Assembly (NCBI RefSeq): GCF_003999255.1
Contig: NZ_CP034791.1
Coordinates: 515,001-579,000 of the forward strand
Source: Caldicellulosiruptor changbaiensis
GTDB taxonomy: Bacteria; Bacillota; Thermoanaerobacteria; Caldicellulosiruptorales; Caldicellulosiruptoraceae
Direction: 5' to 3'
DNA: 64,000 nucleotides
In this document: piece by piece, positions 14,143-63,129 of the stretch
Numbering within the stretch: the stretch's first letter is position 1
Layout: every line of letters starts with the position of its first letter
The notes under the pieces: generated by a model
The model's input: only the letters and a program-made list of their open reading frames with translations
Database searches by the model: none
Told to the model about the DNA's origin: nothing
Program-made: the position numbers and the translations under genes

Positions 14143-14753
14143 ATGTTTGTAGTTAATATTCAAACTCAAAAAAAAAGATAAGGATTCAACTGTTCAAAAA
14201 TGCATTTACGAGGTTATAGACTTTGATGATAGATTGCCTTTAAAGATATTTTATCACAATCTTCCGTTTGTTCAACATCACTGGCACGAAGCGTTAGAGT
14301 TGATTTTCGTTGTTTGTGGTAATGTGACTGTTGTCAAGAATGGAATGATATATAAGTTAGGTAGTGAAGATATATTATTGGTTAACTCCAATGAAATTCA
14401 TACGACATATTTGGATAATAGTGGTATTATTCTTGTTCTTCAAATATCCTCACGTTTTATTAAAGAAAATACAGGTGTTGAGAAAATCACATTTAATTCA
14501 CTGTTGTCAATTCCTGAGAGTAAGTTTGATGTTGATAAAGTAAATGAAATAAAGAAATCTGTGCTTGAAATTATGCTTTTGCATAATAAAAAAGCTGAAA
14601 GTGTAGGCCTTGAAATAAAAAGTAAATTATATCATTTATTATATTTGCTGACTTCTTATTTTAAAGATAACTGTGAAAAAATCTCTTTGGAAGAGAAAAA
14701 GGAATGCCAGAGAGAAAGACTGCAAAGAATTAAAAGAATTATTAAACTTATCG
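14143..14753 (+). pseudogene. AraC-family regulator remnant (cupin half only, frameshifted)
   Basis: The encoded sequence is the sugar-sensing cupin half of an AraC regulator: IFYHNLPFVQHHWHEALELI, then GSEDILLVNSNEIHTTY. The natural start appears to be ATG 14143 (MFVVNIQTQ); a one-base excess in the A9 run at 14168-14176 throws the rest out of frame. At 14754 the gene is cut by IS256 sequence, so the DNA-binding helix-turn-helix half is missing. Two independent lesions make function very unlikely. Confidence 0.8.
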
Positions 14754-15515
14754 ATGGTAGAAGAGGTATTACTATTTTGTGCAGATAGCCTAACAGATTT
14801 AAAAGAAGCAATAGAAGCAGTGTTTCCAAAAAGCGATATTCAAAGGTGTATTATTCATCAGTCAAGTCAATTCGTTCAAATATGTTTCATACAAGCATAT
14901 AAAAGAATTTTCAAAGGATTTTAAAAAAGTATATCAGGCAACTAATGAAGAAGAAGCACTGGAAAATTTTTATCATGTAAAAGAAAAATGGGGGAAACAG
15001 TATCCTTATGCGTTCAGGAGTTGGGAAAGCAACTGGAAGCTACTGACTTCGTTTTTTAAGTTTCCCCCGGCAGAATAAGGAAGATAATTTATACAACAAA
15101 CATCATAGAAGGAGTTCATAGACAATTTAGAAAAGTGACAAAGGCAAAATCAGTATTTCCAAACGATACAGCGTTAGAGAAAATGCTTTATCTTGCAACA
15201 AAAAATGTTGTAAGAAAGTGGACACAGAGGTACAGAAATTGGGATATAATATTAAATCAGCTTTTGATAATGTATCCAGAACGTTTAAGTGAATATATAA
15301 ATTAATAACAAACCTCAGTTCGCTTTTAGATTGCTTCCATGGAAGCAATCTAAAACAAATTAGAACCAGAAAAATCAGAGCAATATATTCCAGTATTAAA
15401 TTTTGTCCAGCTTTTAAAAAATTTATGCATAAAAATTTTTAAAATGGTGATACTAAAAAATAGAAGGTAGACAAGATTATCCTGAATTTAAATACACAAA
15501 ATTATTTACAGACCC
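14754..15515 (+). mobile_element. 3' remnant of an IS256-family element
   Basis: The segment matches the 3' part of the IS256 element at 57800-61249, from the middle of its transposase (VEEVLLFCADSLTDLKEAIE) through IIYTTNIIEGVHRQFRKVTK to the right terminal repeat ending in TTATTTACAGACCC at 15515. The coding part ends at 15305. It carries frameshifts, including the altered CCGGCAGAATAAGG segment shared with the other copy. The left half is missing. Its right end abuts the stop codon of the MORN-repeat gene (15518). Confidence 0.88.
15324..15355. repeat. 32-nt perfect palindrome in the IS256 remnant
   Basis: TTTTAGATTGCTTCCA followed by its exact reverse complement. The equivalent site in the other copy (61034-61065) has two base changes, each compensated on the opposite arm. 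The pairing is therefore conserved rather than the sequence. Confidence 0.85.
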
Positions 15516-15517
15516 TT

Positions 15518-16912
15518 TTAAAAATTATCCTCTAATTTTTGGATCAATTCACCATCTTTCCAGATACCTTTAATTACTTCACCTGTTGCTTTATACATTG
15601 TCCCAGTTCCATTCATTTTATCGTTTTTCCACTCACCTTCATATCTATCCCCATCAGCCCATGTGTATATTCCATACCCTTCTTTGACTCCGTTTTTCCA
15701 CTCACCTTCGTACTTATCACCATTTGCCCATATATATGTGCCTTTCCCATTTATCTTGTCATTCTTCCATTCTCCTTCATACTTATCTCCGTTTGCAAAA
15801 GTGCACGTTCCTCTGCCATCAAACATGCCATTTTTGAAATCGCCTTTATAAACATCTCCATTTGCGCTGTAATATTCTCCATATCCATCCATTGTATCAT
15901 TTTTCCAATCACCTATATACTCATCTCCATTGCTCCACTTGCAGTAGCCATAGCCATGTCTCATACCATCTTTTATCTCACCTTCGTAATAAAAATCTTT
16001 CCCCTCTATTACATGTTCCAGTCTAAAAAGCTGTGATAAACTTAAATTCTTATTACCTTTAAGAGATTTTATTTTCTCAGAAGGAATCACCATCAGATAT
16101 TTTTTATTAGGATTCTCATTATAATACCCTGTAAATCCAATACCAATAACCTCGCCCCTGAAATTAAAAGCTGCCATCCCAGTATCGTCCTTCTTAATAG
16201 CCTCTCCACCAAGAACAAATATCCCGTTATCTTTATCATATTCAGAAACAAACACATTTGTATAAATAGCTGATGTACTAATTACTACCACTCTATCACC
16301 TGGTTTGACCTTAGTTGAGTCGCCTATTTTTACATATGGCAGATTTTTAGCCCCTTTCAATTTTAAAATCGCTATATCCTTTGAAACATCATAGTCTATA
16401 ACCTTTTCAACTTCATATCTCTGATTTCCAATATATACTTCCGCTTTCTGAAGATAATCGATAGCAGTATAAGTTGTTAATATCTTCCCATCAGGTGATA
16501 GCAAAATACCACAATATGTAAAAACCTTACTTTCTTTGTTATAACCTTTTAAAACAACAACCTTGTTCTTTTCTTTCTTGAGCTCATCTAAGGTCCAATA
16601 CCTCACATTGAGTGTTAATATAACATCTTTCTTATAATTTTGAACTTTACCTTTAAATACAAATCTACCCACATTTTGAGTAGATACTCTATTAGGAGTC
16701 CATTTTACAGGAACATAAACTACTTTCTTATCAGAAAGAGTAGCCTTGACTTTGCTTGGCAAAGTAAAACTGTCTCCAACTTTTACTATAATGTTTAAAT
16801 TATCAATTTTCACAATTTTAGTTTTGGTTTGAGCTGATAAAACAAACTGAAAACCTGATATAATGCTCAGAAAACAAATAACAATAATTACTTTTCTAAT
16901 TATTTCCTTCAT
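15518..16912 (-). CDS. Exported protein with Ig-like domain, degenerate trypsin-like domain and MORN repeats
   Basis: About 464 residues from the ATG at 16912, preceded by GGAGG; an in-frame GTG at 16930 overlaps that site. Order: hydrophobic export segment (VIIVICFLSIISGFQFVLSA), an Ig-like beta domain (to about 105), a DegP/HtrA-like serine protease fold (about 110-285), then six or seven MORN repeats of the form NGDKYEGEWKNDK (about 310-450). The protease triad is broken: the usual TNYHV is TTYTAI (no His), the Asp of KDIAILKLK is kept, and the GNSGG loop is DDTGMA (Ser to Thr). It should therefore bind rather than cut. Last gene of a minus-strand run; an IS256 end lies two bases after its stop. 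Confidence 0.8.
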   Translation of the reverse strand: MKEIIRKVIIVICFLSIISGFQFVLSAQTKTKIVKIDNLNIIVKVGDSFTLPSKVKATLSDKKVVYVPVKWTPNRVSTQNVGRFVFKGKVQNYKKDVILTLNVRYWTLDELKKEKNKVVVLKGYNKESKVFTYCGILLSPDGKILTTYTAIDYLQKAEVYIGNQRYEVEKVIDYDVSKDIAILKLKGAKNLPYVKIGDSTKVKPGDRVVVISTSAIYTNVFVSEYDKDNGIFVLGGEAIKKDDTGMAAFNFRGEVIGIGFTGYYNENPNKKYLMVIPSEKIKSLKGNKNLSLSQLFRLEHVIEGKDFYYEGEIKDGMRHGYGYCKWSNGDEYIGDWKNDTMDGYGEYYSANGDVYKGDFKNGMFDGRGTCTFANGDKYEGEWKNDKINGKGTYIWANGDKYEGEWKNGVKEGYGIYTWADGDRYEGEWKNDKMNGTGTMYKATGEVIKGIWKDGELIQKLEDNF

Positions 16913-17016: not shown

Positions 17017-17691
17017 TTATACGTTTGTTTTTAATATACCTGATTCTATGCCATATACACTTGGAGTTATCACAAAATAGTCTTCCAAGATGTACAATCC
17101 ATCAATAAAAAACTTTACTTTCCACTTACCTGTAGGCATTTCATCGCTTATCTGTATGTAATGCCACTCAGTTATGTTGTCCATTCTCTCATCATCACTC
17201 CAAACAATACCACTGCTTTGATCAAAAAATTCCCCATTAGGCTTATACCAAAGTATACTGCTTTGATGAAAACCCAAAACATCTTTATACTCAATCCTCA
17301 CACATACCTTCTCGTCTTTCCTTGAAAAAGCTCTTTTATAAATTAACTCCCCACTTTCAACTGTATCATTGCAAAAGCTAAAGTCTTTAACATATATACT
17401 TGGTTCAAAATCATATGTTAAGATTTCTCCGTTGGCATTTATAGCTATGCAGGAAAATATCTGCCCGTCTTCTGTTGGCAGTGTAAACGGTGCTGCCCAG
17501 TCTATCAGCCTTATATTGTCGTCAATCACAAAAATGTATCTATAAATATCAGAAGGATTCAAATCCAGCTCACACACAAAACTATCATCTCCTCTTGTCA
17601 TCGGAATATATTTTTTTCCTGTCTTCTCTGATATGATTTCTAAATAAACTCTCTCTGCTTCTAAAAATGTGCATTCAAACCTGTACTTCAT
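17017..17691 (-). CDS. Hypothetical beta-rich protein
   Basis: A 224-residue protein with no family I can name. It has no signal peptide. Beta-strand patterns suggest two domains: the N-terminal half (YRFECTFLEAERVYLEIISE, WAAPFTLPTEDGQIF) looks carbohydrate-module- or Ig-like, and the C-terminal part ends GKWKVKFFIDGLYILEDYF. That ending is typical of beta-sandwich domains that close with a strand of alternating hydrophobics. ATG 17691 overlaps the TAA of the upstream TPR gene (TAATG), so the two are translationally coupled and probably work together. Confidence 0.6.
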   Translation of the reverse strand: MKYRFECTFLEAERVYLEIISEKTGKKYIPMTRGDDSFVCELDLNPSDIYRYIFVIDDNIRLIDWAAPFTLPTEDGQIFSCIAINANGEILTYDFEPSIYVKDFSFCNDTVESGELIYKRAFSRKDEKVCVRIEYKDVLGFHQSSILWYKPNGEFFDQSSGIVWSDDERMDNITEWHYIQISDEMPTGKWKVKFFIDGLYILEDYFVITPSVYGIESGILKTNV

Positions 17692-18815
17692 TATTTCCAA
17701 CCCCTCTTTGCTATCTCTTTATCACTTCTAAGTACATTTGTAGTCATACACTTTTTTCTGTTTTCCTCAACCCATCTTTTCCACATAACCTCAAGTTCTT
17801 TCTTCTCTTCCTCACTTAGCTTAAACTCTTTTACCCACCTCTGAAAAAATGGAAATGGATAAAGTTGTATATTACTCTTCCCAAAACCTATCAACGCTTT
17901 CTTGCCTTTTTCAATATCTCCTACCTTTCGATAATAGTAAATCCCTAAATACTCTGGATCTTCTTTCTTCATAATCTCTTCTGCCTCTTTATATTTGCCA
18001 TCAATTAGTTTGTTCAAAAACTCTAACATTTTTAGTTGAAAATTATAATTCTTAAAATAATCCTTGTACTTGGGATAATTTTTTTTCCAAATATCATACA
18101 CTTCTCTTAATTTATCCTTCATACCTAATTCATAATAGCAGTCTCCTGAATATGATAATAGTTCAATATACTCTTTTAAAAATTCATTCTCTTTATCCTC
18201 CTTAACAAGTTGTAAAAACTTTTCTATGTATTCAAGTGCTTTCTTGTAATTTCCATATGCTTCTATATATATTACTCCAAGTGAATAATATGCTCGTCCA
18301 TTAAAATCCCAGGTTGTTTTAGGCTCATCCAAGTCATTAATATTTAAAGATCTTTTTATCCAGTAAACAGCTTCACTCATTCTTTTTATCTCACCAAGTT
18401 CCTGACTTCTCTTTCCAACTGCTACACCTTTATAAAAATAAGCAACCTTTTTAACCCACAATGAGGTATCACTGTTTAACTGCTTCAAAGCAAGGTCTGC
18501 ATAATACTCCTCCATCATCGGATTACCTATCAGATTGGCTATTTCACACATTTTGAAGTAACCACTAATTTTACCATCAGAAGTTTTAGCATTTTTAACA
18601 ATCCATTTCGCAAGAGCTGCCGCGTTATTATACTCCCCTCTATCTATCATCCCATTTATCACACTAAGTGTATCATCTATTGACAAAGTGTTCATTATAA
18701 CTTTGTCATCTACAATGATATATCTGTTTGAAAAAAATTTAAAACCAAAATAAACCAGTATTAAACCTATCAATCCAATTATCAGCCACTTTCTGCTTTT
18801 TCTCATCCTTTTCAA
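17691..18815 (-). CDS. Membrane-anchored TPR-like repeat protein
   Basis: A 374-residue protein with one N-terminal membrane helix (KWLIIGLIGLILVYFGFKFF) after a basic start, then an all-helical region with tetratricopeptide-like pairs, for example YYSLGVIYIEAYGNYKKALE and YSGDCYYELGMKDKLREVYD. The topology suggests a long helical-repeat domain on one side of the membrane, a typical scaffold. TTG 18815 is taken as start, with an alternative ATG at 18806. The stop overlaps the next gene. The frameshifted gene at 18931-20314 lies upstream across a hairpin. Confidence 0.75.
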   Translation of the reverse strand: MKRMRKSRKWLIIGLIGLILVYFGFKFFSNRYIIVDDKVIMNTLSIDDTLSVINGMIDRGEYNNAAALAKWIVKNAKTSDGKISGYFKMCEIANLIGNPMMEEYYADLALKQLNSDTSLWVKKVAYFYKGVAVGKRSQELGEIKRMSEAVYWIKRSLNINDLDEPKTTWDFNGRAYYSLGVIYIEAYGNYKKALEYIEKFLQLVKEDKENEFLKEYIELLSYSGDCYYELGMKDKLREVYDIWKKNYPKYKDYFKNYNFQLKMLEFLNKLIDGKYKEAEEIMKKEDPEYLGIYYYRKVGDIEKGKKALIGFGKSNIQLYPFPFFQRWVKEFKLSEEEKKELEVMWKRWVEENRKKCMTTNVLRSDKEIAKRGWK

Positions 18816-18930: not shown

Positions 18931-20314
18931 TTAATGACCAAAAGCTGGTTTTGCCACTTTTGTCGTAACATCAAATACTTTTTTAAGTTTTCCTAAATTA
19001 CCAGATACTTTGGCTGCCTTTGCTAACTTATCCAATCCTTTGGTACCTGCTATACTAACCCCTACTTCAAACAGTGCTTTCCCTACCATTTCTCCTTTTT
19101 TGTAAACATCACCATTTACAAATTCTTTCTTTGCCTTAGCAACAGATTGCTCTACATATTTTAATGCTGCCTGAGGATGTTTAACTACCACTTTTACCCC
19201 TTCTACAATCTGTTTTGGATGAGTTACAACATCAACTAAACTCTTTGCAGTATTTACAGCCCCTTTGAAAACTCCAACAGCAACTCCTATCTTAAACTTT
19301 GTATCATTTGGTACTGCGAGCCATACACCCTGCATAGTGGTCTTTATCTTATTAAAAGTTTTCTCATCAATGCTTAACCCTACGCTTTTTTCGGAAGTTA
19401 TCTTACCTGTTGATAAAGAATGAGTTACCTTAGCTAAATTTATTTCAGCTTTTCCATTGCTCTTTACTGCTCCCCCAACTGTTACATTAACTTCCTGATT
19501 ATGTGTCTTCAAAAGCACCAGTTTTGTTCCACCTACAATCTCAGCACCCCTTTTGTTAACTGTTACTTTCATTTCATTTTTTACATTTTTCCCTATTGCA
19601 GTTTCTGTTGAAGCCTCAAATTTCTTATTTACTTTTCTCTTCTCTAATTCCAAATTCAATTTACCAGAATTGCTGTGCTCAACAAAACCAGAAGCCTTCT
19701 TTGTATTTGCTTTGTACTGAGAAGATTTTTCAACTCCTACTTCTCCACTTACTGAAGATGTAAATTTTAGATACATTTTGTTGCCTGCTACATTCAAGGT
19801 TATTTTTTTTCTCTTTTATAGTTTTATTCCCTACAACAGAAATACTATTTGTTGTTGTAACATCTACAGCTTTTTTCAAACCTTCTTTAATATCCTTTGC
19901 AACGGTCTCTAATTTTTTCCCAGTTGATTTTACTACTGAAGAAATTTTGTGCTCTACTGTTTTAACTGTGTTATTCAAATTTGAAACTGTAGATTTTACA
20001 AAATTGTTGACTTTGTTCTGAATACTTTTTGCAGTGTCACTAATATCTTTTTTGATATTTGAAAAAATACCCAAAATCCCTCCACTATTTCGTGTATTCG
20101 AACCATGAGTTTTACTGCTGGTAGAAGCTTTTTGCAAAGAAGTGTTTGAAAGTGTAACTTTGTATGCAGCAGTAGACTGCACAGAAGGTTTATTAGGCAC
20201 AATCCAACCTGTTGAAAGCGATCGTGCAGAAACACTATGATTGGAACTATTGACCTTAATATTGTTGTGAGTATTCTTAATCAGGTTATAATTCGTAATA
20301 ATTTTACTACTCAT
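18931..20314 (-). pseudogene. Large Ser/Asn-rich protein with pre-toxin-like end, split by a frameshift in an A8 run
   Basis: Two frames join if one base is removed from the T8 run at 19803-19810 (A8 on the coding strand), giving about 460 residues. ATG 20314 follows GGAGTGAGGGG. The start SSKIITNYNLIKNTHNNIKV is rich in Asn/Ser/Lys with no signal peptide. A helical part follows (NIKKDISDTAKSIQNKVNNF), then a beta-repeat-like middle (KVTVNKRGAEIVGGTKLVLL). The C-terminal block EMVGKALFEVGVSIAGTKGL, DKLAKAAKVSGNLGKLKKVF resembles the linker that precedes toxin domains in LXG/YeeF-type polymorphic toxins, but the protein stops there. The shift could be real decay, slippage control or a sequencing error. 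Confidence 0.6.
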
Positions 20315-20347
20315 ACCCCTCACTCCTCGTTTCTCAATTTTTGTTTG

Positions 20348-20384
20348 ATTATATCCCAAAAAAAAAAAAAAAAAAAAAAAACAA
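20348..20384 (-). promoter_or_regulatory. Promoter with a 24-base T tract in its spacer
   Basis: On the minus strand TTGTTT (20384-20379) and a perfect TATAAT (20353-20348) are separated by 25 bases made of T's plus GGGA. The full homopolymer is A24 at 20358-20381 on the plus strand. Loss of about eight T's would restore the optimal 17-base spacing. The ribosome site and ATG (20314) follow 34 bases downstream. The architecture matches phase-variable promoters known from other bacteria. Confidence 0.6.
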
Positions 20385-20410
20385 TATATAATATTGATGA
20401 ATTTTTTCAT

Positions 20411-20845: not shown

Positions 20846-23800
20846 TTACTCCAACAACTCCAATATTTCCTCTTTAGAAAATTTTCCTATAAACGATTGA
20901 CTTGCTTCGATTAAGCTATCAAATAAGTCTTTCTTTTTCTGCTGCAAAGCAAGTATTTTTTCTTCTATTGAATTTTTGGTTATAATCTTAAATGACTGAA
21001 CAACATTTTTCTGACCCAGCCTGTGTGCTCTTGCTGTTGCCTGGTTTTCAACTGCCGGGTTCCACCATGCATCAAAGTGAATAACAACGTCTGCGCCAGT
21101 AATATTGAGCCCAAATCCACCAGCTTTTAGAGAAAGTAAGAAGACATTTCTCTCTCCACTGTTGAACCTGTTCACCATTTCAACTCTGTCTTCAGCTTTT
21201 GTTGCACCGTCTAAGTAAAAGTATAAAATTTTTTCCTTGTCAAGCATTTTCTTGATAATAGATAACATTGAAGTCCACTGAGAATATATAATTACCCTGT
21301 GCCCGCTTTCTAAACAGTCTTGTAAAATTTCTTTCAGTGCTTCCATCTTACCAGAGCTTCCTTTGTAATCTTCAAATACAAGCTTTGGATGACAGCAGAT
21401 CTGTCTTAGTCTTGTTAATAAGGAAAATATTTTTATTTGACTTTTTTCAAACCCAGCTGAATCTATTTCTTTTTCAATCTCTTTTTTGGCTGAAACTAAA
21501 AATTGCTTGTAGATTTTTTCCTGTTCAGGGCTCATTGCAACTTGGATATTTGTTTCTATTAGCTCAGGAAGTTCGATTAATACATCTTGTTTTACTCTTC
21601 TTAAAACAAACGGTTTTATCAGCTTTTTTAATTTTTCCAAAGCATTATTGTCTCCGCTATAAATTGGCATTGCAAAACGCTCAACAAATTTCTCAGCTCC
21701 TCCTAAATACCCAGGAAGTATAAAATCAAAGATTGACCACAGTTCTATGAGATTATTTTCGATTGGTGTACCTGTCAATGCAAATTTAGCATCTGCACAG
21801 ATTTCTTTTACAGCCAGCTTTATTTGTGAGTGAGGATTTTTTATGTACTGTGCTTCGTCCAAGATACAAACACTAAAATCGATGTCTTTATAAAGTTCTA
21901 TATCTTTTCTCAAAAGTGCATATGATGTAATTACAATATCATATTCTGGTATTTTTTCTATAGCTTTTTTGCGCTTTGCAGGTGTTGAGTCAATAATTAA
22001 AGTTTTCAGACCTGGTGCGAATTTTTCAATCTCTTGTTTCCAGTTATAAATAAGTGATGTTGGCACAATGGCTAATACTGGTTTTTTAATTTTTTGCTTA
22101 TTTGCAAGAATAAAGCCAAGTACCTGAAGCGTTTTTCCAAGCCCCATATCATCAGCTAAAATTCCACCAAGTTCATTTTCAAATAGAGAAGATAACCATT
22201 TTATTCCAAGTTTCTGATAATCTCTTAACACACCTTGAAGCTCAACCGGGATTTGGATATCAGTTTCTTTAATATTTTCTATCTTTTCGATAATGCTTTT
22301 TACACTTTCAACTCCGGTTGCTTGAATTCCGCTTTCATCTAAAAGTTTTGTTATAGCTACTGCTTCTTGTAAAGAAAGCTCAGCTTTTTCTTTTATAACC
22401 TGGCCTATGTCAGATGCAGAATCTATAAATGAAACTAATTTTTTCATATTTGGACTATCTAAAATCAAAATTGAACCATCTTTGAGTTTGTAATACTTTT
22501 TCTTTTTCTTTATTGCATCAAGAATATTTTTAAGCTCTGAACTCTCAAGCTCATTACTTTCAAGCCAGAAGTCAATTGAGTGTTTAGAATATTTTAAGCA
22601 GGGGATAATTTTTACATCTTTTTTAATTTTAAGCTTTTTAAAATCTTCTGAATAATAAACGTCAGTTATCTTTTGGATTTGCGAAACACCTTCTGCTAAG
22701 AATTCCATGAACATATCGGGGTCAAGACATTCATAATAAAATTCTTGGTCAGATTTTATCTCATTAAACCCATAAGCAAACAAAATACTTTGAATCTCAA
22801 ACAAACTAAAATAATCAAATAATGGAACTTTCTTGGTTTTTGAAATTGTATCAAATATTTCATTCATTCCACTGATTCTTGCAACAAACCTTTCATTCTC
22901 AAATTCCAAATATAATTTGGGTTTAATAATATAATCTTCTAAAATAAATTTTTTGAGGTCAGGGTCAATTTCTAATTCAAAGTGCTGGTCTAAAAATAGA
23001 TAATATTTATTCATAAAGTCACAAAAGTCTTCTTTATTAAGGGTAAAAAATTTAACGTATTCAACTTTAAAAAAATTAAATACTCTATTTGCTTCAGCCA
23101 TTTTTTTAATTATTGAAGAAAATATCTTTTGCTCTGGTGTAAGCTTGTAAAGAGTACCATCTGAAACAAAATAACTTCCGTCGCCATATAAAAATTTTCT
23201 GTTAGCAATATCTATTAAATCACTGTAAAGTCTTACCTGATTATCTTCGAGTTTAAATGAAATCTTAGGTTTTACTTTAGTGCAAAGATCAACTTTTACT
23301 TTTTGAGCATCATAATAATTTGCTACAAAGTAATCAAAAGATATAAAAATTTCTTCATTGTCAAGGATTTCGATTATTTCATTTGCAATTTTTGCAGGTA
23401 AGTAAAGAGTATTTTTTTCTGTTTCTAAATCTAAAAAGTTCAGATACTTCAAAAGTACATCCAAAAATTTTTTGTCTTTTTCACCAAAAAAATGATAAGT
23501 AGGATTGGACACAAAATTCTTACCAAACTGAAATGGTTGTTTTTGTTCGTATGCTTTTAAAAATTCTGGTATATTTGAAACTACATAATCTCTTTTAAGA
23601 TCTGAAGTTTTTATCTTTAATTTCAAAGTTATTATGTCATTCGAAGAAGAACCAAAGTATTTTTCTAAAAATATATTGGGAGACTTTTTAGATAAGTTAT
23701 CAAGTGAAAACTTTATATAACTTTCTTCAAAATTGCTTGATATAAACTGATAAATGCGAGAGTTTTTTGTTTTTTCCTTCTCAATAGCCTCATTTAACTT

Positions 23801-24265
23801 TTGTTCTAACATTTGAGACAGAGTTTCTTGCATCTTATTTAGGCTATTGAGAATATATTTACCGTCAGCAAAACTTTTTAACACAGCAATTATATGCCGG
23901 CAAAAATCTTCAAACTGAACAAAATCTTCAATATCTATTTCTTCTTCTGATTCAAAAGTGATATTTTCTAAACTGCATGAACATGCAGCAGTTATGATTA
24001 TATTTTCAATCTCAATATTTCCAAAGAAGTCCTGAGACATATATAAAGGCAGAGCAAAATCGATAAAAACCCAGTATTCGTTCTTGCCATCTTCTACTTT
24101 TGCAAATATTGCATTTTCTTCTTGGTCATACTGAATATTTTCTTTTTTAATTTTTCGAGCAAGGTCAATTCCCTTTTCAAAGGCTTTTCTGTTTTTTGCA
24201 AAATATGCAAGTTTTTGCTCTGAGAGAAACTGCACAATTGTTTGATAATCAAGTTCTAAAGACAT
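20846..24265 (-). CDS. SNF2-family DNA helicase/ATPase with SWIM zinc finger
   Basis: An 1,139-residue Swi2/Snf2 ATPase, thought to move along duplex DNA and remodel protein-DNA complexes. The SWIM finger ligands are C95, C97, C122 and H124 (CSC...FCRH). A long bacterial-specific region (150-650) follows, then the ATPase core: Walker A LADDMGLGKTLQVLGF near 710, DEAQ box ILDEAQYIKNP, SALTGTPIEN-type motif III, and the C-terminal lobe ending RAHRLGQKNVVQSFKIITK. The closest named relative is the RapA/HepA-like group. ATG 24265 lies downstream of AGGATG. No neighbour suggests a dedicated partner. Confidence 0.93.
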   Translation of the reverse strand: MSLELDYQTIVQFLSEQKLAYFAKNRKAFEKGIDLARKIKKENIQYDQEENAIFAKVEDGKNEYWVFIDFALPLYMSQDFFGNIEIENIIITAACSCSLENITFESEEEIDIEDFVQFEDFCRHIIAVLKSFADGKYILNSLNKMQETLSQMLEQKLNEAIEKEKTKNSRIYQFISSNFEESYIKFSLDNLSKKSPNIFLEKYFGSSSNDIITLKLKIKTSDLKRDYVVSNIPEFLKAYEQKQPFQFGKNFVSNPTYHFFGEKDKKFLDVLLKYLNFLDLETEKNTLYLPAKIANEIIEILDNEEIFISFDYFVANYYDAQKVKVDLCTKVKPKISFKLEDNQVRLYSDLIDIANRKFLYGDGSYFVSDGTLYKLTPEQKIFSSIIKKMAEANRVFNFFKVEYVKFFTLNKEDFCDFMNKYYLFLDQHFELEIDPDLKKFILEDYIIKPKLYLEFENERFVARISGMNEIFDTISKTKKVPLFDYFSLFEIQSILFAYGFNEIKSDQEFYYECLDPDMFMEFLAEGVSQIQKITDVYYSEDFKKLKIKKDVKIIPCLKYSKHSIDFWLESNELESSELKNILDAIKKKKKYYKLKDGSILILDSPNMKKLVSFIDSASDIGQVIKEKAELSLQEAVAITKLLDESGIQATGVESVKSIIEKIENIKETDIQIPVELQGVLRDYQKLGIKWLSSLFENELGGILADDMGLGKTLQVLGFILANKQKIKKPVLAIVPTSLIYNWKQEIEKFAPGLKTLIIDSTPAKRKKAIEKIPEYDIVITSYALLRKDIELYKDIDFSVCILDEAQYIKNPHSQIKLAVKEICADAKFALTGTPIENNLIELWSIFDFILPGYLGGAEKFVERFAMPIYSGDNNALEKLKKLIKPFVLRRVKQDVLIELPELIETNIQVAMSPEQEKIYKQFLVSAKKEIEKEIDSAGFEKSQIKIFSLLTRLRQICCHPKLVFEDYKGSSGKMEALKEILQDCLESGHRVIIYSQWTSMLSIIKKMLDKEKILYFYLDGATKAEDRVEMVNRFNSGERNVFLLSLKAGGFGLNITGADVVIHFDAWWNPAVENQATARAHRLGQKNVVQSFKIITKNSIEEKILALQQKKKDLFDSLIEASQSFIGKFSKEEILELLE

Positions 24266-41790: not shown

Positions 41791-41821
41791 GTAATAAAGT
41801 AAAAAAATGGAGGTTAAAATT

Positions 41822-42556
41822 TTGAATAATAAAAATGTTACCTATGTTTTGGTTGCTTTAATTATAGGGATTTCTTTTACAATCTCTTCTTACTTTTTAT
41901 CAAATGGGCTTATAAATCTAAGGGCAGAGAGAAAAGTCATTACAGTAACAGGCTCTGCAAAAAAACAGCTTCGCTCTGACCTTGTCAAGTGGACAGGGAT
42001 GTACACTGTTGTGGCAAAAGATTTAAAAGAAGCTTACAAACTTTTAGAAGAAAGTCAAAAGAAGGTGAAAGATTATTTCCTTTCAAAAGGACTTTCTGAA
42101 AAGGACTTAATTTTTTCTTCAATTTCAACTCAAACAATATATGAGATACTTCCTAACGGAATATATTCAACAAAGGTTGATAGCTACAAGCTTTCGCAAA
42201 GCATTCAGATTACATCAAAAGATGTAGACAAGATTACAGAGCTTTCTCGAAAGTCAACAGAGCTTATAAACTCCGGTGTTCAGTTTGAGTCTATGCCACC
42301 TCAGTATTATTATACAAAGCTTGCAGATTTAAAGATAGAAATGCTTTCTTTAGCGACAGAAGATGCTGTAAGAAGAGCAAAACAGATTGCAAAGAGCACA
42401 GGAAGTAGTGTTGAAAGACTAAAATCTGCTTCTATGGGTGTTTTTCAGATAACTCCGCTTTATTCAACTGAAGTTAGTGACTATGGAATAAATGATACAA
42501 CATCAATAGATAAAGAAATAACTGCTGTTGTGAACTGTGAGTTTATAATAAAATAA
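41822..42556 (+). CDS. SIMPL-domain (DUF541) protein, membrane anchored
   Basis: A 244-residue protein with an N-terminal membrane helix (VTYVLVALIIGISFTISSYF) and a SIMPL/DUF541 domain outside the membrane: ERKVITVTGSAKKQLRSDLV, YKLSQSIQITSKDVDKITEL, ATEDAVRRAKQIAKSTGSSV. Members are linked to stress tolerance or remain uncharacterised. TTG 41822 is chosen because GGAGG (41810-41814) lies just upstream; the earlier ATG at 41807 overlaps that site. It stands alone with its own promoter and ends at a convergent terminator shared with hydF. Confidence 0.87.
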   Translation: MNNKNVTYVLVALIIGISFTISSYFLSNGLINLRAERKVITVTGSAKKQLRSDLVKWTGMYTVVAKDLKEAYKLLEESQKKVKDYFLSKGLSEKDLIFSSISTQTIYEILPNGIYSTKVDSYKLSQSIQITSKDVDKITELSRKSTELINSGVQFESMPPQYYYTKLADLKIEMLSLATEDAVRRAKQIAKSTGSSVERLKSASMGVFQITPLYSTEVSDYGINDTTSIDKEITAVVNCEFIIK

Positions 42557-52938: not shown

Positions 52939-53604
52939 TTAATTGTCATGATGATATGCCACAATTTGCTTTACTCTGCCTTTTGATATTTTAAATTCAA
53001 TTCCGTAATAAAGAGTATCTTGATAATAAATGCTTTCAACCTCTCCTTTCTTATTATAAACAATGCCACCAAATTGCTCTATACCGTCAAACTTGGTCGG
53101 CTGAATTTTTTTAGAACCATTATCTTTTGTTTTTGAGATGACACAGTATAAATATTTGTTATCGCCAATCTTTTCTGGGCTATACCTAAATTTATTCAAC
53201 ACTTTTTTATAACTATCTCCAACTTCAATTCCTCTGGGTCCTTTTATTCCTCTCTTGTTAATTTCTGCATATATTATATAGTTACTCAAATCATTTTCAT
53301 TACCGGGTGCTAACCAAACGCTACCCCAATCATAGTAACAATATTCTACATAATCACCATAAGCACCCCACCATTCTTTCTTAACCTTTTTGGGATTTCC
53401 TAATTTTTTTATCAATTCTCCCTTTGTAGATCCAAATTTTAATTCTGCCAAAACCGGTTCGTTTCTTGTATAAATAGGCTTGTTATTTCTAAAAATAAAA
53501 AGATCATCTTTAAAGATTAAAAACATTCCCATAGCAATAATTGTTATTACAACAAAAATTGATAGAAGAACAGATATTTTTCCATTTTTTAACATCCTTT
53601 TCAC
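52939..53604 (-). CDS. Membrane-anchored cassette partner (BamE/SmpA-like domain), cassette 4
   Basis: A 221-residue protein with an N-terminal membrane helix (VLLSIFVVITIIAMGMFLIF) and an outer domain whose start LAELKFGSTKGELIKKLGNP is the helix-turn pattern of SmpA/OmlA (BamE-like) domains, which bind other proteins. It is closely related to the 216-residue partner of the M23 effector at 61562. In cassette 4 the effector gene has been deleted down to its final 18 codons, which still overlap the start of this gene, so only the partner remains. Candidate immunity protein by position and location; not shown. Confidence 0.75.
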   Translation of the reverse strand: MKRMLKNGKISVLLSIFVVITIIAMGMFLIFKDDLFIFRNNKPIYTRNEPVLAELKFGSTKGELIKKLGNPKKVKKEWWGAYGDYVEYCYYDWGSVWLAPGNENDLSNYIIYAEINKRGIKGPRGIEVGDSYKKVLNKFRYSPEKIGDNKYLYCVISKTKDNGSKKIQPTKFDGIEQFGGIVYNKKGEVESIYYQDTLYYGIEFKISKGRVKQIVAYHHDN

Positions 53605-56642: not shown

Positions 56643-57512
56643 CTAAAGACCAATTTCTTTTTTTATCTTTTTCCAAGTATTTATATCTGTAACTTTGTAG
56701 TCTCCTTTTACAAACATTTCCCATTCATCGTATCTGCGTCTTTGTAAACCTTCTAATACTATTCCTTGAGCTTTAGAATAGACAAGAAAATCGTCTCTAA
56801 GTTCTTTCTCTAATTTAGTATCAATACCATTTTTAATAGCTTTAATTATATCAGCTCGAATTTTTGATTTTTCATTAGTTGTCCATGCTTTTCCAACGTT
56901 AAATGTAAAACTTACTAAAGCATCAAATTGGTTTTGTGAAAGTTGAATTTTGTTATTTTCCATAAATTTATTTATTGCATCAGTTGCATTTTTGATATCA
57001 CTTTTGAAAAATTCATATGCTTTTTCTTCTGTTATTGCTTTTTTGGGCTTATTAGTTTTAAGATCAACATATTCTTCCAATTCTTTGCCTTTTAATACAT
57101 GTCCAATTCCAATAGTCCAAACTCCGTCTTTGTCTCTATAGGCGATTGAGGAATATCCTTCATAAGATTTAACAAATTCAAATAATGCTTTGCTTGGTTC
57201 TAATCTTTTTATTTTTGTTGAAGTATTTTGGCTTTTATAAACAGCATTTATCTTTGTTGTAGACGATACAGAATTTGAACCAGGTCTTTCGTAAACTATT
57301 TTACCATAGAACTCATCAGCAGGAAAACCTTTTTCATAAACATAGGCAGGCGAAATTTTAGAGTTGTTTTGGGCTGTATTTTGTTTTGAAGGTGAGAGAT
57401 AGCTTTTTGAAATTTGCTCTGCAGTACTTTTTTGGGCTGACAGGTTTTGAAGGCAAGAGCTATTTTTAAGAGTCAAATTAAGATTATTAGAAGTTAATAC
57501 AATACTTTTCAT
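56643..57512 (-). CDS. Cassette 2 effector: shared leader fused to a GH24 (T4-type) lysozyme
   Basis: 289 residues. The leader (1-77) has no signal peptide, is rich in Ser/Asn/Lys and ends in the conserved block SPAYVYEKGFPADEFYGKIV. A short linker precedes a GH24 lysozyme domain (about 105-288). Glu of KSYEGYSS, Asp of YRDKDG and Thr of WTIGIGH keep the 9 and 6 residue spacing of E11-D20-T26 of T4 lysozyme, and GLQRRRYDEWEMF near the end is the family signature. It should cleave the peptidoglycan glycan strand. The start is MKS (57512), as forced in the M23 paralogue. Followed by an exported partner gene and a terminator. Confidence 0.88.
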   Translation of the reverse strand: MKSIVLTSNNLNLTLKNSSCLQNLSAQKSTAEQISKSYLSPSKQNTAQNNSKISPAYVYEKGFPADEFYGKIVYERPGSNSVSSTTKINAVYKSQNTSTKIKRLEPSKALFEFVKSYEGYSSIAYRDKDGVWTIGIGHVLKGKELEEYVDLKTNKPKKAITEEKAYEFFKSDIKNATDAINKFMENNKIQLSQNQFDALVSFTFNVGKAWTTNEKSKIRADIIKAIKNGIDTKLEKELRDDFLVYSKAQGIVLEGLQRRRYDEWEMFVKGDYKVTDINTWKKIKKEIGL

Positions 57513-57710
57513 TTTCCTCATAACCCCCTATTTTCATTTGTTTTTTGTTTATCATGGAATTATAATACAAAAGTATATCGAAAAATACAGGTAAAAACAA
57601 TAGTGATTTTAAACAAAAAAGCAACAATAAATTAAAAATGTATATATAAAAAATAGACAATATATGTTTTTTGAGAAGGCACTTTAATTCTTGCGGGTGT
57701 TTTATAAATC
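57513..57710 (-). promoter_or_regulatory. Conserved cassette upstream region
   Basis: Nearly identical to 55551-55740 upstream of cassette 3, and its effector-proximal 100 bases match 63130-63235 upstream of cassette 1. It contains TTTTGTATTATAATTCC (TATAAT -10, no clear -35) about 50 bases before the start, and the ribosome site GGGGGTTATGAGGAA. Strong conservation of non-coding DNA implies shared control or recent duplication. Confidence 0.65.
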
Positions 57711-61561: not shown

Positions 61562-62212
61562 CTAATTATCATGATAATATACCACAATTTGTTTTACTCT
61601 GCCTTTTGATATTTTAAATTCTATTCCATAATAAACACTATCTTGATAGTAAATGCTTTCAACTTCTTCTTTCTTATTATACACAGTGCCACCGAATTGC
61701 TCTATATCGTCAAACGTGGTAGGCTGAATTTTTTTTAAACCATTATCTTCTGTTTTTGAAATGACACAGTATAAAAATTTGTTATCGCCAATCTTTATCG
61801 GGCTATACCTAAATTTATTCAACACTTTTTTATAACTGTCTCCAACTTCAATTCCTCTAGGTCCTTTTATTCCTTTCTTGTTAATTTCTGCATATATTAT
61901 ATAGTTACTCAAATCACTTTCATTACCGGGTGCTAACCAAATAGTACCCCAATCATAGTAACAAAATTCTACATAATCACCATAAGCACCCCACCATTGT
62001 TTCTTTATTTTCTTAGGTTTACCCACTTTTTTTATCAATTCTCTCTTTGTACTTCCAAATTTTAATCCCATTAAAATTGGTTCATTTCTTGTAAAAATAG
62101 GCTTATTATTTTTGAAAACAAAGAGTTCATCTTTAAAAATTGCAAATACTCCTGCAGCAATAACAAGGATTCCTATAATAATCGCTAAAACAATTAATAA
62201 CTTCTTTCTCAT
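61562..62212 (-). CDS. Membrane-anchored cassette partner (BamE/SmpA-like domain), cassette 1
   Basis: A 216-residue protein: basic start, membrane helix (LLIVLAIIIGILVIAAGVFA), then the outer domain LMGLKFGSTKRELIKKVGKP, WWGAYGDYVEFCYYDWGTIW, GPRGIEVGDSYKKVLNKFRY. Its ATG overlaps the stop of the M23 effector gene (ATGA), so the two are translated together, the tightest effector-partner link in the array. A paralogue in cassette 4 (52939) survives without its effector. Domain resembles SmpA/OmlA; proposed to hold the M23 effector in check or assist its export. Confidence 0.78.
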   Translation of the reverse strand: MRKKLLIVLAIIIGILVIAAGVFAIFKDELFVFKNNKPIFTRNEPILMGLKFGSTKRELIKKVGKPKKIKKQWWGAYGDYVEFCYYDWGTIWLAPGNESDLSNYIIYAEINKKGIKGPRGIEVGDSYKKVLNKFRYSPIKIGDNKFLYCVISKTEDNGLKKIQPTTFDDIEQFGGTVYNKKEEVESIYYQDSVYYGIEFKISKGRVKQIVVYYHDN

Positions 62213-63129
62213 TTTTTATCTTCCTTTTCACTTTTTGTTTTAAGTCTAATCACATCCATCGGATTTATTAAATCACTTCTACGTTTATAATTTGCTTGAG
62301 GTACATATTTATATGTTTTATTATTCTCTTGAGTAAGAGGTCCACTGCTATCACCCTTATAAACTTCTAAGTGAAGCATTGCATTTCCAGTTTCTGTATT
62401 AGGTATAACAGTGGCTATGACTTGTCCTTGCCTTACCTTATCCCCAACTTTAACTTTTGATTTAACTTCACCATATCTGATAACAGAACCATCACTGTTT
62501 TTTATTTCTATTGCCTGTGTACCCGCATAGAAATCATAAACAGCAGTCACTGTTCCATTAGTCATTGCAAGCACTTTTGCATCCTTTACACCCTTGTTGG
62601 TTTTCTTATCATAAGTTAAAAGATCAACTCCTGCATGAGTTCTTGTACCACCATCTCGTGGAGCACCAAATTGCCTTCCATCTGTTGCGGGATTGGCTAC
62701 AATTAAGTTTTTGGATTCTAAAGGAAATATCCACTTGTCAATCCGTTGTTCCCAGAATTCTTTGCTTGGATCAGTTCTTCTTGTTTCACTGGTTTTAGTT
62801 TTTTCAACTGAACTACTTGAATTTAGAATTTTACTGCTATTATTTGGATTTTGAATAGAACTGCCACTTTTTGAAGGCGGCAAAGAGTAAATTGAACTTG
62901 GTTTGCTATAGACTATTTTACCATAGAACTCATTAGCAGAAGAACCTTTTTCATAGACATAGGCAGGCGAAATTTTGGAATTATTTTGAACTGTATTCTG
63001 TTTTGAATTAGAAAAATAATTTTTTGAAATTTGCTCTTTGGTAGTTTTTTGCGCTGACAGGTTTTGAAGATAAGAGTTATTTTTAAGATTCAAATTAAAA
63101 TTGTTAGAAGTTAATACAATACTTTTCAT
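62209..63129 (-). CDS. Cassette 1 effector: shared leader fused to an M23 peptidase domain
   Basis: 306 residues. The leader (1-77, MKSIVLTSNNFNLNLKNNSY to FYGKIVY) matches the other effectors; a Ser/Asn-rich linker runs to about 120; an M23 endopeptidase fold fills 130-285. Zinc ligands are H165 and D169 in THAGVDLL and H253 in MLHLEVY. Two positions that are usually His are changed: M251 in place of the first His of HxH, and RYGEV where YxHL is common. The lysostaphin-like beta core KVKVGDKVRQGQVIATVIP is intact. It should cut peptide cross-links of peptidoglycan, or bind them. No signal peptide. Start ATG 63129 behind GGGGGTTATGAGG. Confidence 0.85.
   Translation of the reverse strand: MKSIVLTSNNFNLNLKNNSYLQNLSAQKTTKEQISKNYFSNSKQNTVQNNSKISPAYVYEKGSSANEFYGKIVYSKPSSIYSLPPSKSGSSIQNPNNSSKILNSSSSVEKTKTSETRRTDPSKEFWEQRIDKWIFPLESKNLIVANPATDGRQFGAPRDGGTRTHAGVDLLTYDKKTNKGVKDAKVLAMTNGTVTAVYDFYAGTQAIEIKNSDGSVIRYGEVKSKVKVGDKVRQGQVIATVIPNTETGNAMLHLEVYKGDSSGPLTQENNKTYKYVPQANYKRRSDLINPMDVIRLKTKSEKEDKK

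What the first reader, a model, noticed from the sequence alone, without database searches (positions are those of the whole stretch)
15518..16912. Pseudoprotease fused to MORN repeats
The DegP-like domain has lost both His (TTYTAI for TNYHV) and Ser (DDTGMA for GNSGG) while keeping the fold-defining Asp and glycine positions. Fusion to an Ig-like domain and six or seven MORN repeats outside the membrane is unusual in bacteria. A binding or sensing role is likely.
Basis: partly seen in the sequence, partly recalled or inferred. Interest (0 to 1): 0.5.

Follow-up and report, generated by a model that had tools for sequence, protein, structure and literature searches.

The report
Dead protease fused to MORN repeats
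A bacterium appears to export a protein whose protease domain has lost its cutting residues but keeps its fold and carries a rigid repeat arm, so it probably works as a binding scaffold; this is an interesting but local variation on known themes.

Summary
ORF 15518-16912(-), 464 aa, reads signal peptide, Big_4 Ig-like domain, HtrA-type (S1C) trypsin fold, then six MORN repeats plus a partial seventh. The modelled S1C fold matches DegP, DegQ and the RsgI9 S1C domain (Z about 24). His is Thr149 and Ser is Thr244; Asp179 remains.

The loss is older than this copy. The 82%-identical gene in G003 has Val and Ala there, both G008 copies match the window, and dN/dS of the dead domain is 0.13. Of 61 distinct S1C ORFs gathered, 55 are His-Asp-Ser; the other six are this gene, its orthologs, or one truncated ORF. 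A distant protein, G042, is an intact-triad S1C fused to MORN. So intact relatives exist, but recent decay alone is a poor account.

The gene is accessory: behind a toxin-like cassette, intact in 2, frameshifted in 1 and deleted in 1 of 12 genus genomes. Best reading: exported non-catalytic binding scaffold. Its ligand (glycan, wall or protein) is undetermined.

The parts
15518..16912 (-). Pseudoprotease-MORN gene, 464 aa
16832..16912 (-). Signal peptide (about residues 1-27); no later hydrophobic span
   Evidence: Sequence; hydropathy; helix 2-26 in model. The cleavage site is by eye.
16634..16807 (-). Big_4 bacterial Ig-like domain (residues 36-93)
   Evidence: Pfam E 1.5e-13; model confidence there is low, pLDDT under 60
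16043..16600 (-). S1C (HtrA-type) trypsin-fold domain, residues about 105-290
   Evidence: Pfam Trypsin_2; model pLDDT mostly above 90 for residues 111-260; Z about 24 to DegP, DegQ, RsgI9
16466..16468 (-). Thr149 at the catalytic His site (Val in G003)
16376..16378 (-). Asp179 at the catalytic Asp site, kept
16181..16183 (-). Thr244 at the catalytic Ser site (Ala in G003)
15539..15991 (-). MORN repeats, six full and a partial seventh (about residues 308-458); net charge about -10
   Evidence: best Foldseek matches are MORN1 crystal structures
17017..17700 (-). Upstream gene: E-set/CBM48-like protein, 227 aa; cassette member
   Evidence: Pfam AMPK1_CBM 27.6 bits, cut-off 26.8
17691..18815 (-). 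Membrane-anchored TPR-like protein, 374 aa; overlaps the previous gene; cassette member
   Evidence: Pfam TPR matches, all under their cut-offs
18931..20410 (-). Toxin-like carrier protein, split into two frames here; 479 aa and open in G008 copy L048; cassette member
14673..14924 (+). Transposase remnant downstream; related fragments lie downstream of the G008 and G002 cassettes (IS256-type by recall)

Best explanation
An exported, non-catalytic binding scaffold. The Big_4 domain is a spacer. The S1C domain keeps its double barrel but not its chemistry and is used as a binding surface, and the MORN repeats form a rigid acidic beta arm that contacts another protein or dimerises. It lies at the 3' end of a small cassette encoding a toxin-like carrier, a membrane protein and an E-set/CBM48-like protein, as an accessory gene. 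Shown: domain order, loss of His and Ser, selection on the dead domain, cassette position and accessory status. Predicted by model: the kept fold. Inferred: export, binding rather than cutting, and the partner. The likeliest ligands are a glycan or cell-wall polymer (as reported for the S1C domain of RsgI9) or a protein of the cassette.
For: Triad loss in the three orthologous copies, with different replacements (T/T and V/A), so neither site is held as a new catalytic residue. dN/dS between G000 and G003 is 0.132 for residues 105-285, against 0.106 for 28-104, 0.097 for 290-464 and 0.149 for the neighbour gene; G000 against the two G008 copies shows 23 synonymous to 3 and 23 to 4 non-synonymous changes. 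Confident S1C and MORN model. RsgI9 S1C-NTF2 (7sjy) is the best S1-type Foldseek hit (rank 16) and ties with DegP/DegQ at Z 24.3; its S1C domain is described as protease-like and cellulose-binding (PMC12203970, passages). Charge is split: Big_4 +11.7, S1C +5.8, MORN -10.1, with the same signs in G003 (+10.7, +2.9, -10.5), while 12 relatives' S1C stretches range from 0 to -14. MORN arrays dimerise in crystals and solution (PMC7725318, passages). GH94, GH32 and GH36 enzymes lie in the same window. In MamO an HtrA fold with Thr for Ser was repurposed (PMC4794232, passages).
Against: No ligand is shown. The gene is frameshifted in G003 and deleted in G002, so whatever it does is dispensable. Resemblance to RsgI9 is at fold level (22% identity), and DegP scores slightly higher (24.8). 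Without more orthologs no conserved surface patch can be mapped. The charge split may be coincidence; cut at other borders, the G042 S1C domain comes out at +1.1.
Confidence: 0.5

Rival explanations
1. Cassette accessory or extracellular immunity factor: it binds and neutralises, or helps deliver, the toxin-like carrier encoded three genes upstream.
For: All four copies found (G000, G008 twice, G003) lie 3' of the CBM48-like gene. The carrier shares a domain (its residues 365-474) with proteins of other genera; the three of six that I read have PG_binding_1 in front, and one of them a TNT toxin domain behind.
Against: The related cassettes of G002, G007 and G009 lack the gene. G003 has the gene but no carrier match. 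In G008 both CBM48-like neighbours are split, and the carrier is split in the window and in one G008 copy, while the pseudoprotease stays open. The carrier ends just after the shared domain and has no Pfam match.
Confidence: 0.18
2. Relic: a former surface protease that lost its triad and is on the way out.
For: Frameshift in G003 (indel at an A-run, possibly a sequencing error), clean deletion in G002 with the start region kept, intact in only 2 of 12 genus genomes. Other genes of the cassette are broken too.
Against: dN/dS of 0.03-0.13 over the whole protein, dead domain included; two open copies kept in G008.
Confidence: 0.18
3. A protease with altered chemistry, for example a Thr nucleophile.
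For: Thr at the Ser site; Asp kept.
Against: The G003 ortholog has Ala there; His is gone (Thr or Val) and the two residues before the nucleophile are Asp-Asp. MamO also has Thr, and its T225A mutant is like wild type (PMC4794232, passages).
Confidence: 0.03

Closest known systems
RsgI9 S1C-NTF2 ectodomain, Clostridium thermocellum (PDB 7sjy)
   Same: S1C fold (Z 24.3, rmsd 2.2, 185 residues); extracellular; described as protease-like and cellulose-binding (PMC12203970, passages)
   Different: RsgI9 is a transmembrane anti-sigma factor with an NTF2-like domain; here there is a signal peptide, Big_4 and MORN. The RsgI9 triad was not read here.
MamO magnetosome pseudoprotease
   Same: HtrA fold with Thr in place of the catalytic Ser, not catalytic (PMC4794232, passages)
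   Different: MamO has a His at the triad (H116), a C-terminal transporter domain and a metal-binding di-His site; the window protein scores 25.8 against the MamO cut-off of 800
   Same: S1C followed by MORN repeats, signal-like N-terminus
   Different: Triad intact (H, D, S); copper amine oxidase N-terminal domain instead of Big_4; fewer repeats (2 Pfam stretches)
G013/G014 proteins L028/L027
   Same: Big_4 followed by S1C; best sequence relatives outside the genus of the N-terminal 285 residues (E about 1e-34, 35-36%)
   Different: SLH repeats in front (Pfam run on L028), intact triad, no MORN
MORN heliorhodopsins of Dethiobacteria
   Same: MORN repeats fused to another domain in Firmicutes (PMC8612252, passages)
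   Different: Cytoplasmic MORN on a membrane protein. That paper says further MORN fusions are in a supplementary table, which I could not see.
Inactive serine protease homologues of prokaryotes
   Same: Loss of catalytic residues: 42 of 966 serine proteases of five families in 91 genomes were putatively inactive (PMC2605481, passages)
   Different: The word MORN does not occur in its main text

Membership tests
S1C (HtrA/Deg) serine peptidase | Trypsin-like double-barrel fold | tested here: met
   (sequence profile and predicted model)
S1C (HtrA/Deg) serine peptidase | His-Asp-Ser triad | tested here: not met
   T149, D179, T244; V, D, A in G003
S1C (HtrA/Deg) serine peptidase | C-terminal PDZ domain, usual in HtrA | tested here: not met
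   No PDZ among the Pfam matches up to E 1; MORN instead. degP_htrA_DO 53.2 bits against cut-off 416.2
MORN repeat protein | Tandem 23-residue MORN units over the Pfam cut-off | tested here: met
   146.9 bits, 6 stretches; MORN1 structures as best Foldseek hits
RsgI-type anti-sigma factor | Transmembrane helix after a cytoplasmic anti-sigma domain, NTF2-like ectodomain | tested here: not met
   Only an N-terminal signal helix; no such domain among the five Pfam matches
MamO | NCBIfam MamO cut-off | tested here: not met
   25.8 of 800 bits
YwqK-type MORN_2 antitoxin (recalled lead) | MORN_2 (PF07661) repeats | tested here: not met
   PF07661 is not among the five families listed up to E 1
Polymorphic-toxin immunity gene | Constant partner of a toxin | tested here: inconclusive
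   Cassettes without it exist, and G003 has it without a carrier match; no toxin domain found in the carrier

The most novel reading that the evidence does not exclude
In this group of Firmicutes, surface S1C proteases form a modular family in which the enzyme core can be turned into a binding module (RsgI9-like) and given a MORN arm; the window gene is a fully dead, selected example that serves as an extracellular glycan- or partner-binding accessory of a polymorphic-toxin-like cassette.
Probability: 0.2. Interest if true: 0.6.

Novelty: new variant of a known kind. Interest (0 to 1): 0.37.

Why it matters
It adds a dead HtrA-type domain kept under selection, joined to MORN repeats on what is probably an exported bacterial protein; I found little in print on MORN repeats in such a setting. 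Two comparisons make it testable: the RsgI9 S1C domain, reported to bind cellulose, and G042, the same S1C-MORN order with its triad intact.

Tried and rejected
Ordinary recent pseudogene: rejected as the main account because of dN/dS and the shared losses, though G003 and G002 show real loss. Thr-nucleophile enzyme: rejected, the site is Ala in G003. Common origin of the two S1C-MORN fusions: undecided. On a 20-row tree the AU test does not reject joining the window family with L033 (p 0.205), nor with the Big_4 proteins L027/L028 (p 0.213); the window branch is very long (3.91). Viral contigs: 28 pattern matches but no relative of the N-terminal 285 residues. A second scan gave 79 HtrA-like loci, found with patterns that ask for an intact His or Ser motif, so they say nothing on triad loss; 28 of them went into the structure alignment. 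Plasmids: 62 records match, none over 80% of the query; the 25 listed match either the MORN or the S1C part, not both. Genome contigs: 7 relatives, all matched through the MORN part; the MORN ORFs of six of them (L003-L008) gave no significant S1C match, and L009 was not in that screen. Promoter scan: 11 sites against 10.5 expected; one terminator-like site, inside the gene. Literature: no S1C-MORN fusion appeared in the titles or abstract starts listed (9 of 9; 6 of 6; 12 of 21; 12 of 833). The supplementary table of MORN fusions named in PMC8612252 could not be read. Active-site geometry was not measured on the model.

Full report
What is there. ORF 15518-16912 on the minus strand encodes 464 aa: signal peptide, Big_4 36-93, trypsin-like domain 135-258 by Pfam (about 105-290 by structure), and MORN repeats. 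Pfam reports six MORN stretches; by eye there is a partial seventh. A leave-out profile of 12 S1C relatives scores the domain 107 bits, against a best of 5.1 for 200 shuffles. AlphaFold2 on an alignment of 29 sequences gives mean pLDDT 77.9 and pTM 0.52: most ten-residue blocks from 111 to 260 are at 90 or more (80-85 at 221-240), the MORN blocks after residue 320 are mostly 80-94, and the Big_4 region is below 60. The closest Foldseek hits are MORN1 crystal structures; the best S1-type hit is RsgI9 S1C-NTF2 (7sjy, rank 16). In the second look DegP, DegQ and RsgI9 tie at Z about 24, so fold alone does not favour RsgI9 over HtrA enzymes.

The triad. His is Thr149 (TTYTAI), Asp179 is kept and Ser is Thr244 (DDTGMA). 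The G003 ortholog has Val and Ala at the His and Ser sites and keeps Asp. Both G008 copies equal the window at these sites. Among 61 distinct ORFs from the loci held at that time that match the S1C profile, 55 are His-Asp-Ser. The six others are the window gene, the two G008 copies, the two G003 frames and one N-terminally incomplete ORF (L076, G386) that has the Ser. The three incomplete rows were dropped before the tree, leaving 58. The loci were chosen as search hits, so 55 of 61 is not a census of the family. A 2008 survey already counted 42 putatively inactive homologues among 966 prokaryotic serine proteases of five families (PMC2605481, passages), so a dead protease as such is not new.

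Decay or selection. Between G000 and G003 dN/dS is 0.106 for residues 28-104, 0.132 for 105-285, 0.097 for 290-464, 0.149 for the upstream CBM48-like gene and 0.084 for one other gene (window 41807-42556); the signal peptide is looser, 0.614 on 27 codons. Against the G008 copies it is 0.03-0.04. So the dead domain has been kept about as well as its neighbours. Against this, the G003 gene has a frameshift at an A-run. In G002 both full cassettes keep the start region, with point changes, and then jump to sequence just after the window's stop codon, which reads as a deletion. The gene is under selection where kept, but dispensable.

Distribution. In the genus, full or frameshifted copies are in 3 of 12 genomes. 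The other 9, and the one further genome of the order, have only an ordinary HtrA hit at about E 1e-5 to 1e-6. In the class, 9 of 37 genomes match at 1e-9. L027/L028 share Big_4 and S1C and L029/L030 have a copper amine oxidase N-terminal domain (Pfam run on L028 and L029 only); L031/L032 are ordinary HtrA enzymes by eye. All six have intact triads. In a phylum sample 11 of 398 genomes match at 1e-12, two of them through Ig-like repeats only. MORN occurs in 43 of 398. I fetched 33 regions around MORN hits, besides 30 loci that came with the search. Of 73 ORFs with two or more MORN motifs (all loci, duplicates included), the S1C profile significantly hit only the window family, G042 and G386. 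The list of MORN matches was cut off, so 3 of 398 is a lower bound. In the class of G042, 38 of 46 genomes match the G042 protein at 1e-25; among the S1C ORFs of the loci fetched from them only G042's carries MORN motifs. The G042 protein has an intact triad and two Pfam MORN stretches. Six other genomes of the genus were also in the MORN search and had no MORN match.

Setting. Upstream on the same strand are a CBM48-like gene, a TPR-like membrane protein gene overlapping it, and a toxin-like carrier gene that is split here and open in one G008 copy. The CBM48-like gene is found in 6 of 37 class genomes, all in this genus. Carrier, TPR-like protein and CBM48-like gene recur together in G002, G008 and G009. 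A different membrane protein stands in G007 and in the third G002 cassette; G003 has a different membrane protein, the CBM48-like gene and the pseudoprotease, but no carrier match. In both G008 copies the CBM48-like gene is split, and in one the carrier too, while the pseudoprotease is open, so its upkeep does not follow the cassette closely. The carrier's residues 365-474 match proteins in six genomes of other genera; three that I read have PG_binding_1 in front and one a TNT toxin domain behind. The carrier itself has no Pfam match. The gap to the pseudoprotease gene is 104 bases; the scan found no terminator in it, and its promoter count equals chance. Downstream lies a transposase remnant, seen also next to the G008 and G002 cassettes.

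Mechanism. Binding without cutting is the simplest use of a kept but dead enzyme fold. PMC12203970 (passages) describes the S1C domain of RsgI9 as protease-like and cellulose-binding. PMC4794232 (passages) shows an HtrA fold with Thr for Ser used without catalysis. PMC7725318 (passages) shows MORN arrays as dimerising beta arms and reports no binding to lipid vesicles for one of them. The window lies among glycan genes (two GH94, one GH32, one GH36). The charge split (basic Big_4 and S1C, acidic MORN) is shared by G003, while 12 S1C relatives range from 0 to -14 (G042 gives +1.1 with other borders). It fits a basic end on the anionic wall with the acidic arm outward, which is inference only. 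I put 0.5 on an exported binding scaffold, without choosing among glycan, wall and cassette protein.

Limits. Only one diverged ortholog exists, so selection rests on one pair plus near-copies. The relation of the two S1C-MORN fusions is unresolved.

Noticed in passing
18931-20410 (-); L048:5756-7195; L264, L265, L266, L267, L268: A toxin-like carrier with a Ser/Asn-rich N-terminus recurs in the genus with variable C-termini and different membrane-protein partners, usually with a CBM48-like gene; in the window it is split, as in one G008 copy.
   Followed up: partly
56643-57521 and 62209-63129 (-): Two proteins share an N-terminus (MKSIVLTSNN-NL-LKN) but end in a phage-lysozyme or an M23 peptidase domain: polymorphic effector-like, with no classical signal peptide seen by eye.
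   Followed up: no
52939-53604 and 61562-62212 (-); L049:4858-5490; L264, L265: A family of small single-helix membrane proteins lies near these effector-like genes and near cassettes of G008 and G002; candidate immunity proteins.
   Followed up: no
L264:6430-6700, L265:6472-6745 (G002): Deletion scar: start region kept with point changes, coding region gone, in two cassette copies of one genome.
   Followed up: yes
L250:1087-2280, L249, L252: In three genomes of the class, PG_binding_1 proteins share the carrier's C-terminal domain; one ends in a TNT toxin domain and one in an Ntox24 match under the cut-off.
   Followed up: partly
20846-24265 (-): Large SNF2-family helicase; matches a pilus-regulating Snf2 family and Zorya ZorD well under their cut-offs.
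   Followed up: no
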